Source of the DNA: Commensalibacter communis
GTDB taxonomy: Bacteria; Pseudomonadota; Alphaproteobacteria; Acetobacterales; Acetobacteraceae
Length of the DNA stretch: 64,000 nucleotides
Assembly (NCBI RefSeq): GCF_947179015.1
Contig: NZ_CAMXCM010000001.1
Location: 855,387 to 919,386 of the forward strand
Reading direction: 5' to 3'
Shown here piece after piece: positions 4,552 to 9,923 of the stretch; position 1 is the first letter of the stretch, and every line of letters begins with the position of its first letter. Position numbers and translations under genes: made by a program. The notes below the pieces were generated by a model, which was given only the letters and a program-made list of their open reading frames with translations, was not told the origin of the DNA and did not search any database.

Positions 4552-4875
4552 TTAACTGCGATGGCGATGTTTTACAGCAGTTTTTTTATGTGAAGAAGAT
4601 TTATAAACGGCATTTTTTACAGATAGTTTGCCTTTTTGTTTATAGGAAACATTTCTTACGAGTTTCGAGTGGTTTTTACTTGAACTTGTTTTATATGAAA
4701 CTTTTCTGGCTTTATAATGACGAACAGCAGGAGCAGCAGTTAAAGATTCTAGTGTTAATTTACCAGCTTCTGTTTCTGTAACAATATGTTGTGCTTTTGC
4801 AGAAGAAGGAGATAAGGAAACAAGTGCGGCGGCACCAAAAAGGAAACAAATTGTTTTTTTGAAATGTCTGACCAT
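4552..4875 (-). CDS. Small exported basic protein, function unknown
   Basis: A 107-residue protein I do not recognise. Residues 1-28 form a clear Sec signal peptide (basic start, hydrophobic core, AKA-Q cleavage site). The mature part is about 79 residues, very rich in Lys, Ser and His, lacks Cys, and ends in a K-H-R-H-R-S tail. The composition suggests a disordered, strongly positive periplasmic or surface protein that could bind nucleic acid, lipopolysaccharide, peptidoglycan or metal; none of this is shown. The only nearby structure is the AT-rich hairpin upstream at 4972-5007. Protein-like features (a well-formed signal peptide followed by biased composition) support it as a real gene. 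Confidence 0.6.
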   Translation of the reverse strand: MVRHFKKTICFLFGAAALVSLSPSSAKAQHIVTETEAGKLTLESLTAAPAVRHYKARKVSYKTSSSKNHSKLVRNVSYKQKGKLSVKNAVYKSSSHKKTAVKHRHRS

Positions 4876-5611: not shown

Positions 5612-7819
5612 CTATACTTTCATTAATTTTTCAAAAAAGCTTTTGGAAGCAGCTTTCATTCGAGCAATCGTTGTGACCGCACCAGATGGCATGACGAGGC
5701 TATCACCTCCTGTACAACCAATGAATCTGACTGGAATGTCTTGCGCTTTGGCTGCTTGTAACAGCGCATCTTTTTGAGAGGTCATTACCAAATAACGTGC
5801 TTGATCTTCACCAAACCAATAGGCCTCTGGACGCATTCCAACTTCTGGCACATCCAAAGTACATCCCACGTTTCCTGCCATTGCCATTTCAGCAGCTGCA
5901 ACTAATAACCCGCCATCTGAAACATCGTGACAAGCTTCGATCACACCATTTGCTATTTGCTCTCTGACAAAATCACCATTACGGCGTTCTGCTTGCAAAT
6001 CCACTTGGGGAGGATTTCCTGTTTCTTTACCTAAGATTTCTCTTAACCACAATGTCTGTCCTAATTCGCCCTTGGTTGCACCAATGACAACAAGGTCATA
6101 ATCTGCTTTGAACACATTTCCGATGGTTTTAGAAACATCATCAATAACACCCAAAGCACCAATGGCAGGTGTTGGTAATACAGAAACATTCTCGCCATTT
6201 GCATCACGAGTTTCATTATATAATGAAACGTTACCACTGACGACAGGGAAATCAAGTGCATTACAAGCATCTTTCATGCCTTCAATCGCTGCAACAATCT
6301 GCCCCATCACTTCTGGTTTTTCTGGATTACCAAAGTTCAGATTATCAGTCACTGCCAAAGGTTTCGCGCCTGTTGCCGTAATATTACGCCATGCTTCTGC
6401 AACAGCTTGAGCACCACCTTGGTAAGCATCAGCAGCACAATAACGTGGGGTACAATCTGTGGTTAATGCAAGACCAATATTAGTACCATCAACACGAATA
6501 ATCGCTGCATCTGCTTGGCCGGGACGATAAACTGTTTGCCCACCAATGGTGCTGTCATATTGATCCCAAATCCAAGAACGAGATGCAAGATCAGCACAAC
6601 CTAGCAATTTGATTAAGGATTGTTCAATACTGACATCAACGTCTATTGCCCCTAAAGGTTCAGGCTTTGGTGAAGGTGCAGTCGGACGATGATATAAAGG
6701 CGCTTCATCAGCCAAAGGTTCTAATGGAATATCAGCTTCGGTTTGACCATGATGTTTAATGACAATGTGACCCGTGTCTGTCAAATGACCAATGATTGCA
6801 AAATCCAATTCCCATTTTTCAAAGATTTCTTTTGCAAGGTCAGTACGATCAGGACGTAAAACCATCAACATGCGTTCTTGGCTTTCTGACAACATCATTT
6901 CATAGGCTGTCATGTGTTCTTCACGTTGAGGAACATGGTCAAGATTAAGTTCAATACCAACACCGCCCTTGCCGGCCATTTCCACAGCAGAAGAGGTCAA
7001 GCCGGCAGCACCCATATCTTGAATAGCAACAATCGCATCGGTTGCCATTAATTCTAAGCACGCTTCGATTAATAGTTTTTCAACAAATGGATCACCCACT
7101 TGAACTGTTGGACGTTTTGAAGCTGCGTCCTTATCAAATTCAGCAGAAGCCATCGTTGCGCCATGAATACCATCACGACCTGTTTTAGAACCCACGTAAA
7201 TCACTGGATTTCCAATACCAGCAGCAGCAGAAAGGAAAATACGATCTTGTCTGGCAACACCGACATTCATGGCATTAACCAATGGATTTCCATTATAGCT
7301 GGCATGGAAATTAACTTCTCCACCAACTGTCGGAACGCCAACGCAGTTACCATAACCACCAATTCCACGAACAACACCATCCACAATATGACGAGTTGCT
7401 GGATGATCGGGGCTACCAAAACGCAATGCATTTAAATTCGCTACAGGACGTGCACCCATGGTAAAGACATCGCGTAAAATACCACCAACACCAGTTGCAG
7501 CACCTTGATAAGGTTCGATAAATGACGGATGGTTATGACTTTCCATTTTGAAAATCGCAGCCAAACCCTGACCAATATCGACTACGCCAGCATTTTCACC
7601 TGGGCCGTGAATAACCCACGGAGCTTTGGTAGGAAGATTACGCAACCAAGCACGAGAAGATTTATAAGAACAATGCTCTGACCACATGACGGAGAAGATA
7701 CCAAGTTCTGTTAAACTTGGAGTTCTGCCCATAATGGTTAATACTTTGGCATATTCATCGCTTGATAATCCAAATTCTTTGCCAAGTTCTTCATTTACAA
7801 TAAGTTGAGCTTTACTCAT
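5612..7819 (-). CDS. purL: Phosphoribosylformylglycinamidine synthase, large subunit PurL
   Basis: A 735-residue small-type PurL that converts FGAR to FGAM with ammonia delivered by PurQ, in complex with PurS. The N-terminus (ELGLSSDEY-like, then [16 protein letters not shown]) holds the catalytic histidine region, followed by the ATP-binding GPGENAGVV and KMESHNHPS segments; two PurM-like halves follow ([16 protein letters not shown] and [18 protein letters not shown]). I place the start at 7819, where ATG overlaps the purQ stop as ATGA. An in-frame extension upstream would run deep into purQ and lacks family similarity. Length is normal for alphaproteobacteria. bolA follows after four bases. 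Confidence 0.96.
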
Positions 7820-8517
7820 CGTGTTAATGTCTCCATGATTCCTTGGAAAAGGGGTTTTCCATCTTCGCTGCCCATTAAGGGATCGACCATATCTTCGGGA
7901 TGAGGCATCATACCACAAATACGGCCAGTTTGATCGACAATGCCAGCAATCGCATTAATGCTGCCATTTGGATTAAAATCGGAATTCGATGGATCAATCT
8001 CACCATTAGGAGAAGCATAACGGAATACAACTTGCCCCTCGCCTTCAAGACGTTTTAATCCTTCAGCATCACAAAAATAATTACCATCACCGTGTGCTGT
8101 TGCTGTTCTGAATATATCTCCTTGCTTCCATCCTTGGGTAAAAGCAGTGTCATTGCGTTCAATACGTAAATGACAATCTCTGGAAAGAAATCTCAAGCTA
8201 GCATTCGGTAGTAACGCGCCAGGCAACAGATTTGCTTCAGTTAAGATTTGGAAACCATTACAAACGCCCATGATATATCCACCCTTTTGTGCAAAGGCTT
8301 GGATTTCACGCATGATTGGGGAATGTGCAGCCATTGCGCCACAACGTAAATAATCCCCGTAACTGAAACCACCAGGCAAAACAACCATATCGAGTTGTGG
8401 TAATGCCGTCTCACGATGCCAAATAATTTGGGGGGTAAACCCTGTCACACGTTCAAAAGCGATAACCATATCTCGTTCACGGTTGGTACCTGGAAATACA
8501 ACGATACCTATTTTCAT
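7816..8517 (-). CDS. purQ: Phosphoribosylformylglycinamidine synthase, glutaminase subunit PurQ
   Basis: A 233-residue class I glutamine amidotransferase that frees ammonia from glutamine for PurL. The motifs are [14 protein letters not shown] for the oxyanion region, the nucleophile Cys86 in GVCNGFQ and the C-terminal MMPHPE with the catalytic His/Glu. It overlaps purL by four bases (ATGA) and starts three bases after the stop of the small exported Rap1a-like gene, an unusual insertion between purS and purQ. Confidence 0.96.
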
Positions 8518-8520
8518 GAT

Positions 8521-8913
8521 CTATTTTCCATTTTTCGTAGAAGGACATGGATAAGCATCATGCAATGCCGTAAATACAGATGCTCCAGCAGGTTGAGATA
8601 ATTGGTCTGAATGAGCAGTCATCCAAGCAATCACTTTGCTTCTCATTTCTTTACCAGAAACATTGGTTGCAATACAAAAACCAGCAGGCGCACTAGCATC
8701 TCCTTGATTCTTTGCAAACATTTTGGAGTATGCTACAGAATCTGCGATCCCACTGATATAAGCATCACAGGCTTGCAAAGATTTTGTATTTTTACAAATT
8801 TGCAAAAATTTCCCAGATTGCAATGGTGTTACTCTTTGAGCCAACGCAGATTGAGCGCCAGATACAGCCATCAATCCAAAGCCAGCCAAAAGAAAGGCTA
8901 TTTTTGTATTCAT
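8521..8913 (-). CDS. Exported Rap1a/Tai-like protein encoded inside the purine operon
   Basis: A 130-residue protein with a Sec signal peptide (hydrophobic core about 5-20, cleavage after SALA near residue 25). The mature part resembles the Rap1a/Tai domain known from type VI secretion immunity proteins and many uncharacterised exported proteins: four cysteines (C40, C49, C80, C123), a C-x8-C-D-A-Y-I-S-G pattern, a GFCI segment and a final YPCP. Disulfides are likely. Its start overlaps the purS stop (ATGA, 8910-8913) and its stop is three bases from purQ, so it is translationally coupled to purine genes. No type VI genes are in the window, so immunity is not implied. The family assignment is from memory of the pattern. 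Confidence 0.72.
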   Translation of the reverse strand: MNTKIAFLLAGFGLMAVSGAQSALAQRVTPLQSGKFLQICKNTKSLQACDAYISGIADSVAYSKMFAKNQGDASAPAGFCIATNVSGKEMRSKVIAWMTAHSDQLSQPAGASVFTALHDAYPCPSTKNGK

Positions 8914-9152
8914 GCCAAAACCTCAACTTGGAAGTCCTCAATCACGCCATTCGCCAAAAGTTGCTGAGCCATTTCAGTAGCTCTTGCTTTCGCTTTTTCT
9001 GGGGATGTTTCTGTAACTTCTAAATCAATAACGCGACCGACGCGAACGTCTTGAACTTCCTGAAAAGACAAATTATGTAGAGCATGATTAATTGCTTTGC
9101 CTTGAGGATCTAAAACCCCTTGCTTTAGCATAATAATTAAACGAACTTTCAT
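8910..9152 (-). CDS. purS: Phosphoribosylformylglycinamidine synthase subunit PurS
   Basis: An 80-residue PurS that bridges PurL and PurQ in the FGAM synthase complex. The family pattern is clear: VRLIIMLKQGVLDPQGKA, then LSFQEVQDVRVGRVIDLEV and the C-terminal LLANGVIEDFQVEV. It begins immediately after the purC stop and overlaps the downstream exported-protein gene by four bases, so the three are tightly coupled. Confidence 0.95.
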   Translation of the reverse strand: MKVRLIIMLKQGVLDPQGKAINHALHNLSFQEVQDVRVGRVIDLEVTETSPEKAKARATEMAQQLLANGVIEDFQVEVLA

Positions 9153-9923
9153 TTAGATACTCTCCAAGCCTTCTTTACCTTTAAGGGATTCAATATTTGA
9201 TTCTGGTATAATTTTTAAACGACGTGCCACTTCTTGATAGGCTTCTTCAACTTTACCTAAATCTCGACGGAAACGATCTTTGTCCAGTTTTTCGCCGCTT
9301 TCAATATCCCAAAAGCGACAATTATCGGGGGAAATTTCGTCAGCCAAAACGATGTGAGATTCATCATCTTTCCAAAATCTGCCAAATTCCAGTTTGAAAT
9401 CAATCAATTTGATACCAACACCAAGAAGTAACCCACTTAAGAAATCATTAATTCTGAGTGTATAAGTAACGATTTCATCCATTTCTTGAACGGTTGCCCA
9501 ATTAAATGCCGTGATGTAATCTTCTAATACCAACGGATCATTAAGATCGTCATTTTTAAGGTAATATTCTACCAAAGGACGTGGTAAACGTAGCCCCTCT
9601 TCTAATCCCAAACGTTTAACAATACTGCCAGCAGCAACGTTCCGAACAACGATTTCCAGAGGAATAATCTCAACCGCTTTGACCAACTGTTCGCGCATAT
9701 TTAAACGACGAACAAAGTGGGTCGGAATGCCAATATCTTCGATTTGTGTCATTAAATATTCGCTGATGCGATTATTTAAAACACCTTTTCCTGTAATAGT
9801 TCCTTTTTTGGCACCATTTCCAGCAGTGGCATCATCTTTGAAATATTGAACAATTGTTCCAGGTTCTGGCCCCTCATAGAGGATTTTTGCCTTACCTTCA
9901 TAAATTTGTCGACGGCGGGTCAT
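9153..9923 (-). CDS. purC: Phosphoribosylaminoimidazole-succinocarboxamide synthase
   Basis: A 256-residue SAICAR synthetase that ligates aspartate to CAIR with ATP, the step before PurB. N-terminal [12 protein letters not shown] is the ATP-binding signature of the family; [14 protein letters not shown] and [14 protein letters not shown] are the other diagnostic segments. The start is supported by AAGGGA before ATG. It heads the purC-purS-x-purQ-purL-bolA-grxD transcript, downstream of purB across 133 bp that contains a hairpin and an inverted repeat. Confidence 0.97.

What the first reader, a model, noticed from the sequence alone, without database searches (positions are those of the whole stretch)
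8521..8913. Exported Rap1a-like protein locked between purS and purQ
A signal-peptide protein with four cysteines overlaps purS by four bases and is three bases from purQ. Subunits of one enzyme complex (PurS/PurQ/PurL) are split by a gene for a periplasmic protein, which is hard to explain by function and suggests either coupling for expression dosage or an undocumented link to purine metabolism.
Basis: partly seen in the sequence, partly recalled or inferred. Interest (0 to 1): 0.55.

Follow-up and report, generated by a model that had tools for sequence, protein, structure and literature searches.

The report
Periplasmic Rap1a-like gene in purine operon
Acetic acid bacteria keep a gene for a probably secreted, cysteine-rich protein (related to antibacterial-toxin immunity proteins) wedged between two purine-synthesis genes; it is widespread and under selection, and in one lineage it outlived the purine genes around it, so it probably has a job of its own in the cell envelope and only shares their expression.

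Summary
Confirmed: window 8913-8521 (-) encodes a 130-aa signal-peptide-like protein of Pfam Rap1a (PF18602, E 5.8e-17), with a 4-bp ATGA overlap with purS, 3 nt before purQ. It is no strain oddity: at least 59 of 136 purS-bearing Acetobacteraceae genomes carry a PF18602 gene directly after purS, and 74 of 75 named relatives, found by protein pattern alone, lie between purS and purQ. Its Shine-Dalgarno site lies in the purS tail in 74 of 75 (3 of 30 outside the family). Mature-part dN/dS in four close comparisons is 0.07-0.16. The predicted fold matches Rap1a/Tai4. Key natural experiment: one genus (two near-complete genomes) shows no purS, purQ or purL but keeps the gene between purC and bolA. 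A part in FGAM synthetase is therefore unlikely; translational coupling in the purine operon is the better reading. T6SS self-immunity fits poorly (sheath gene in 16 of 59 linked genomes). In 34 other genomes the slot holds an unrelated two-TM protein. Function is inferred: a housekeeping periplasmic, perhaps endopeptidase-binding, protein. Moderate interest.

The parts
8521..8913 (-). Rap1a-like, probably exported protein, 130 aa, four cysteines
   Evidence: ORF; PF18602 E 5.8e-17; AF2 mean pLDDT 86.9; PDB folds Rap1a/Tai4
8839..8913 (-). signal peptide codons 1-25 (cleavage ALA|Q), judged by eye
   Evidence: sequence; pLDDT 55-73 in the blocks of residues 1-30
8910..8913 (-). ATGA overlap of purS stop and rap1a-like start
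   Evidence: -4 offset in 72 of 74 named loci
8921..8924 (-). GAGG Shine-Dalgarno-like motif of the rap1a-like gene inside the purS tail
   Evidence: sequence; motif class found in 74 of 75 named loci
8910..9152 (-). purS
   Evidence: PF02700 E 4.1e-30
9153..9923 (-). purC, directly upstream of purS
   Evidence: PF01259 E 8.6e-81
7816..8517 (-). purQ
   Evidence: PF13507 E 8.1e-46
5612..7819 (-). purL, 4-bp overlap with purQ
   Evidence: PF02769, PF00586, PF18072
5377..5607 (-). bolA (also kept in the genus that lost purS/Q/L)
   Evidence: PF01722 E 1.6e-14

Best explanation
A housekeeping gene of Acetobacteraceae, kept by descent, for a periplasmic, disulfide-bonded protein of the Rap1a/Tai4 fold. 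It sits between purS and purQ and is co-translated with them: its ribosome-binding site is written in the codons of the purS tail, and its stop overlaps or abuts the purQ start, so its dose should follow the purine operon. It is not a part of the purine enzyme. Shown by sequence: conservation, coupling features, predicted fold, purifying selection, survival without purS/Q/L in one genus. Inferred: export, actual coupling of translation, and (less sure) that it binds a peptidoglycan endopeptidase, as its fold relatives do, in a domesticated rather than weapon-linked role.
For: At least 59 of 136 purS genomes have a PF18602 gene right after purS, same strand in each (67-211 bp between profile matches). 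75 named loci found by protein pattern alone, all Acetobacteraceae: 74 complete purS-gene-purQ. On a PurC+PurS+PurQ tree of 98 family loci and 21 outgroup loci the gene's presence changes 7 times against a mean of 39.3 (minimum 32) in 500 label shuffles; 39 of 39 loci of one clade that holds acetous genera have it (the tree holds 53 loci with the gene but only 45 of 77 genomes without it). SD motif in the purS tail: 74/75 and 48/55 with the gene, 11/21 and 13/20 without it, 3/30 outside the family; SD before the gene 72/73 against 5.9% in controls. dN/dS 0.09-0.19 whole, 0.07-0.16 mature, four comparisons. Genus of G029/G116: no PurS, no GATase_5, no PurL; order purB-purC-gene-bolA-glutaredoxin; its proteins nest within the slot clade (support 0.98) and are 74% identical to each other with dN 0.19, dS about 2. 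Fold: Z 10.2-11.5 to Rap1a/Tai4, next entry 3.7.
Against: Export is judged by eye; there is no experiment. The fold server warns that Z under about 13 can be common for helical bundles, so the fold match leans on its gap to the next row and on the Pfam and profile hits. The window protein matches none of 10 mapped Ssp1 contacts of Rap1a, though the proven inhibitor AtTai4 lacks the key Gln84 too, so this does not decide. The purQ SD is weak after the gene (median -5.0 kcal/mol in named loci, -6.0 in the other loci) but also outside the family (-3.8), so dependence of purQ on the gene is not shown. 13 of 20 loci without any slot gene also have the purS-tail motif, where it serves purQ. The gene tree does not put all slot proteins in one clade (low support), so more than one insertion is possible. 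The purS-less genus is a single lineage.
Confidence: 0.72

Rival explanations
1. T6SS immunity protein: it neutralises a Tae4-type amidase, either the cell's own T6SS effector or one injected by neighbours (orphan immunity).
For: Family and fold are those of Rap1a/Tai4; the window's own genome encodes a Tae4-domain protein (L196 1294-1995), and same-genus G040 has both a Tae4 domain and a T6SS sheath gene.
Against: T6SS sheath gene in only 16 of 59 linked genomes against 50 of 77 unlinked ones (Fisher p 1.4e-5, not corrected for kinship); Tae4 domain in 2 of 59 linked genomes; descent inside a biosynthetic operon is unlike effector-linked immunity genes. Orphan defence against neighbours is not excluded.
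Confidence: 0.2
2. True functional link to purines: the protein senses or affects an envelope process tied to purine supply.
For: Strict linkage over many genera.
Against: Kept without detectable PurS, PurQ, PurL in two genomes of one genus, where PurD is also absent or under the cut-off; in other family genomes with the operon the slot is empty or holds an unrelated membrane protein.
Confidence: 0.1
3. Neutral passenger: no selected reason for the protein or its place; it stays because removal would disturb purQ translation.
For: ATGA coupling to purQ (69 of 74) and few SD motifs before purQ (7 of 73).
Against: dN/dS 0.07-0.16 for the mature part, C80 and C123 kept in 49 of 49, and survival where purQ is gone need selection on the protein itself. 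The place alone may still be neutral.
Confidence: 0.12

Closest known systems
Rap1a of Serratia marcescens (PDB 3zfi, 4bi8), inhibitor of the Ssp1 amidase
   Same: Pfam family, all-helical fold (Z 10.2-10.5 over 84 residues); by the profile alignment its disulfide pair Cys78/Cys122 corresponds to C80/C123 and its dimer residues Tyr64/Asp70 to Y52/D58
   Different: 16% identity; a second cysteine pair C40/C49; none of 10 mapped Ssp1 contacts kept in the window protein; lies in a purine operon with no partner amidase beside it
Tai4 of Agrobacterium tumefaciens (PDB 6ije, 6ijf)
   Same: closest solved structure by profile (E 2.4e-5) and by fold (Z 11.5); Cys80-Cys124 disulfide and alpha-2 dimer reported (passages of PMC6277958)
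   Different: paired with a T6SS effector; 24% identity; serine in place of C49 (the counterpart of C40 lies outside the aligned stretch)
purS-purQ genes of other Alphaproteobacteria
   Same: purC-purS(-purQ) order where checked
   Different: none of 30 purS loci from outside the family has a Rap1a-like gene there; purQ lies within the fetched stretch in 22, and in 18 of these within 67 bp of purS

Membership tests
Pfam Rap1a (PF18602) | profile score over curated cut-off | tested here: met
   62.4 bits against 27.7
Pfam Rap1a (PF18602) | Rap1a/Tai4 all-helical fold | tested here: met
   predicted model: Z 10.2-11.5, rmsd 2.0-2.4 over 84-85 residues; next entry 3.7
Pfam Rap1a (PF18602) | cysteines of the Cys78-Cys122 disulfide | tested here: met
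   C80 and C123 in 49 of 49 aligned slot proteins; the bond itself was not seen
T6SS immunity protein (functional class) | encoded beside a T6SS amidase effector | tested here: not met
   neighbours are purS and purQ
T6SS immunity protein (functional class) | host has a T6SS | tested here: not met
   no VipB match in G000 at E up to 1e-10 (draft of 66 contigs, 99.76% complete); same-genus G040 has one; 16 of 59 linked genomes have one
T6SS immunity protein (functional class) | effector-contact residues kept | tested here: inconclusive
   0 of 10 mapped Ssp1 contacts identical in the window protein, but AtTai4, a proven inhibitor, lacks Gln84 too (PMC6277958 passages)
T6SS immunity protein (functional class) | neutralises a Tae4 amidase | not testable with these tools
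   needs a binding or protection assay
periplasmic protein | Sec signal peptide and export | tested here: inconclusive
   n-region, h-region and ALA|Q by eye only
subunit of FGAM synthetase | present only together with PurS, PurQ, PurL | tested here: not met
   kept in G029 and G116 without them

The most novel reading that the evidence does not exclude
A toxin-immunity fold domesticated as a housekeeping periplasmic regulator of the cell's own peptidoglycan endopeptidases, with its dose set by the purine operon (growth) through a ribosome-binding site evolved inside the purS coding sequence; the purS-purQ junction of Acetobacteraceae is a slot where envelope proteins (Rap1a-like in many lineages, a two-TM protein in others) are placed under purine-operon control.
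Probability: 0.3. Interest if true: 0.68.

Novelty: new variant of a known kind. Interest (0 to 1): 0.5.

Why it matters
It is a clean case in which strict gene linkage does not mean shared pathway: in one lineage the gene outlives the pathway genes it was locked between. It also offers a setting away from T6SS for a fold that the papers seen here describe as T6SS immunity, and a testable model for how an envelope protein is tied to growth through a biosynthetic operon.

Tried and rejected
Functional part in FGAM synthetase: rejected by the purS/purQ/purL-less genus. Canonical T6SS self-immunity: rejected as the general role by T6SS and Tae4 counts; orphan defence left open. Commensalibacter's own Tae4-like protein as the partner: not general (2 of 59), and not beside the gene. 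Contact-residue test: uninformative. 'purQ depends on the gene for translation': the motif count looked striking (7 of 73), but duplex energies gave a weaker picture and outgroup purQ is weak as well, so it is not claimed. purS-tail remnant upstream of the gene in the purS-less genus: the L263 junction ranks first of 137 ATGA sites, the L262 junction does not stand out; only suggestive.

PDB search with the single protein gave only chance hits; NCBIfam gave none. I first noted bolA as lost in that genus; searches show it is kept, corrected in entry 3. The linked count of 59 is a lower bound because one search lists only its best 150 matches; so 'no genome has both slot proteins' holds for the two lists. 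The C40/C49 'invariance' in A1 is partly by construction, since the pattern used to pick rows asked for the first two cysteines; C80 and C123 were not asked for. A1 holds 49 of 59 picked rows; dropped were three second loci of a genome already in, five near relatives of rows kept and the two fused two-domain proteins. The tree holds 53 loci with the gene but 45 of the 77 purS genomes without it, since only part of the latter were fetched or long enough. dS could not be computed for purS and purC against L004.

Papers: complete listings (1 paper; 9; 1; 1; 0) held nothing on this gene in a purine operon, by title and start of abstract; only the top 25, 15, 10 and 8 of 296, 1,352, 652 and 88 papers were seen, so absence from print is not claimed. 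Passages of PMC3852654, PMC9100681 and PMC6277958 were read; all other papers were seen as listings.

Full report
The observation. The window lies in a Commensalibacter-like genome (nearest named match C. intestini, 82% identity of this protein). On the minus strand the order is purB (11412-10057), purC (9923-9153), purS (9152-8910), the gene in question (8913-8521), purQ (8517-7816), purL (7819-5612), bolA (5607-5377) and a glutaredoxin gene (5360-5031). The gene encodes 130 aa with an N-terminal signal-peptide-like stretch (by eye) and four cysteines. Pfam gives Rap1a, PF18602, at E 5.8e-17. It is the only such match in its genome.

Spread. Of 150 Acetobacteraceae genomes drawn by the tool, 130 have a PF18602 match at E up to 1 (118 over the cut-off) and 136 have PurS. 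In 59 of these 136 a listed PF18602 match follows purS on the same strand at 67-211 bp between profile matches; this is a lower bound because only the best 150 matches were listed. A search of named genomes by short protein patterns, blind to neighbours, returned 75 loci, all Acetobacteraceae: Acetobacter, Gluconacetobacter, Komagataeibacter, Novacetimonas, Asaia, Swaminathania, Acidomonas, Tanticharoenia, Ameyamaea, Brytella, Lichenicoccus, Commensalibacter and two bins named only to family. In 74 of 75 the order purS-gene-purQ is complete (the other, L195, has purS but gave no purQ match); the start overlaps the purS stop by 4 bp in 72 of 74 (one at +1, one a misplaced start) and the stop overlaps the purQ start by 4 bp in 69 of 74.

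Outside the family. A profile of 49 slot proteins (A1) matched 59 of 289 genomes of the class, 4 of them in the family. None of the 26 fetched loci from outside the family shows a pur gene in the fetched stretch (up to 1.5 kb each side, less at contig ends). Conversely, of 30 purS loci from other families none has the gene; 22 show purQ within reach, 18 of them within 67 bp of purS, and 8 show no purQ in the fetched stretch.

The slot. Among the family's 136 purS genomes, 59 have the Rap1a-like gene; 34 have an unrelated protein with two hydrophobic stretches (69-88 aa in the loci read), same strand, 5-339 bp after the purS match in each; 43 are in neither list; the two lists share no genome. 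In 20 of the 25 fetched loci with neither gene whose purQ start was placed, purQ starts within 40 bp of the purS stop. On a tree of PurC, PurS and PurQ with 21 outgroup loci, presence of the Rap1a-like gene changes 7 times against a mean of 39.3 in 500 label shuffles (minimum 32); presence of the two-TM protein changes 4 times; all 39 loci of one clade that holds acetous genera have the Rap1a-like gene. That tree holds 53 loci with the gene and 45 without (of 77), so the proportions are not a fair sample. A gene tree of the short Rap1a-like proteins is weakly supported and does not join all slot proteins; separate insertions in some lineages (for example L064/L071) remain possible.

Coupling. 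In named loci a Shine-Dalgarno motif precedes the gene in 72 of 73 (two of 75 set aside: one without purQ, one with a misplaced start) and purQ in 7 of 73, against 5.9% at random places in purQ. The motif before the gene lies inside the purS tail codons (GAG GT.): 74 of 75 named and 48 of 55 other loci with the gene, 11 of 21 with the two-TM protein, 13 of 20 with purQ directly after purS, and 3 of 30 outside the family. Duplex energies to the anti-SD: median -10.6 kcal/mol before the gene, -5.0 before the purQ that follows it, -2.9 in controls (named loci); -9.4 and -6.0 in the other loci with the gene; purQ after the two-TM protein -6.2, purQ directly after purS -7.0, outgroup purQ -3.8. The gene thus has a good ribosome site tied to purS; whether purQ needs the gene is not shown.

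The protein. AlphaFold2 from A1 gives mean pLDDT 86.9. Among solved structures only Rap1a and Tai4 stand out (Foldseek best E 2.8e-3, probability 1.00; Z 10.2-11.5 with the next entry at 3.7; the tool warns that helical bundles can reach such Z by common arrangement). By sequence profile Tai4 has E 2.4e-5 and Rap1a 0.005. C80 and C123 take the place of the Rap1a Cys78-Cys122 bond, and Y52 and D58 (47 of 49 each) that of the dimer residues Tyr64 and Asp70; the mapping rests on the profile alignment. None of 10 mapped Ssp1 contacts is identical in the window protein, but the key Gln84 is also missing in AtTai4. Against four relatives dN/dS is 0.09-0.19 (mature part 0.07-0.16), higher than for the pur genes (0.01-0.07 where computable) but well under 1.

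Natural experiment. Two genomes of one genus (G029, one contig; G116, two contigs; 98 and 99% complete) have no PurS match, no GATase_5 domain, which would also mark a long fused PurL, although all 14 control genomes do, and no PurL match, while three control relatives do. PurD is absent in one and under the cut-off in the other. Their loci read purB, purC (much diverged, 43-45% identity to the window's), the Rap1a-like gene, bolA, glutaredoxin. The gene is intact, with PF18602 at 1e-14 and 7.6e-12, nests in the slot clade, and differs between the two genomes with dN 0.19 and dS about 2, which is saturated. The genes on both sides of it are gone and it stayed. This argues that it serves something other than FGAM synthesis. 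It is one lineage, so one case.

T6SS. A sheath gene (VipB) is found in 16 of 59 genomes with the linked gene and in 50 of 77 other purS genomes (kinship not corrected). A Tae4 domain is found in 6 of 150 genomes, 2 of them linked. The window's genome has no sheath match (it is a draft; same-genus G040 has one) but has one Tae4-domain protein with an N-terminal hydrophobic stretch between a glycosyltransferase gene and an RgpF-domain gene, without a Rap1a-like neighbour. So self-immunity cannot be the general role; defence against neighbours is possible.

Verdict. The finding is real and conserved; its coupling half is supported, its purine half is not. Most likely this is a housekeeping periplasmic protein with a borrowed immunity fold, riding on the purine operon.

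Noticed in passing
L112:1934-2182 (-), A3 members; 34 of 150 family genomes: Unrelated small protein with two hydrophobic stretches (MIKASL..LTVLI..WREER..RW.TAAALA..GGLHWLRV) sits in the same purS-purQ slot in other lineages; no genome is in both lists; no Pfam match over cut-off.
   Followed up: partly
L262:4452-7755, L263:4489-7777: Genus with no detectable PurS, PurQ or PurL and a strongly diverged PurC, yet purB, purC, bolA and glutaredoxin kept in order.
   Followed up: yes
L196:1294-1995 (+), G000 C5; similar in L198: Tae4-domain amidase (E 1.5e-21) with an N-terminal hydrophobic, signal-like stretch between a glycosyltransferase gene and an RgpF-domain gene, without a Rap1a-like neighbour.
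   Followed up: partly
L070:1437-2192, L077:1437-2207: In one genus the slot gene is a fused tandem of two Rap1a domains (251 and 256 aa, 9 cysteines each) (L070 scanned).
   Followed up: no
window 4552-4875 (-); L262:4104-4442, L263:4126-4476: Small, probably exported, lysine/histidine-rich protein near the glutaredoxin gene, fast evolving (55% identity between G029 and G116); the window copy has no Pfam match over cut-off.
   Followed up: no
L272 (G013 C1:261941-262210): Second, very similar copy of that genome's slot protein elsewhere, changed at the C-terminus and lacking the last cysteine; looks like a recent partial duplicate.
   Followed up: no
L118:1434-1691 and L120: An extra 85-aa hydrophobic protein lies between purS and the two-TM protein in one genus (no Pfam match).
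   Followed up: no
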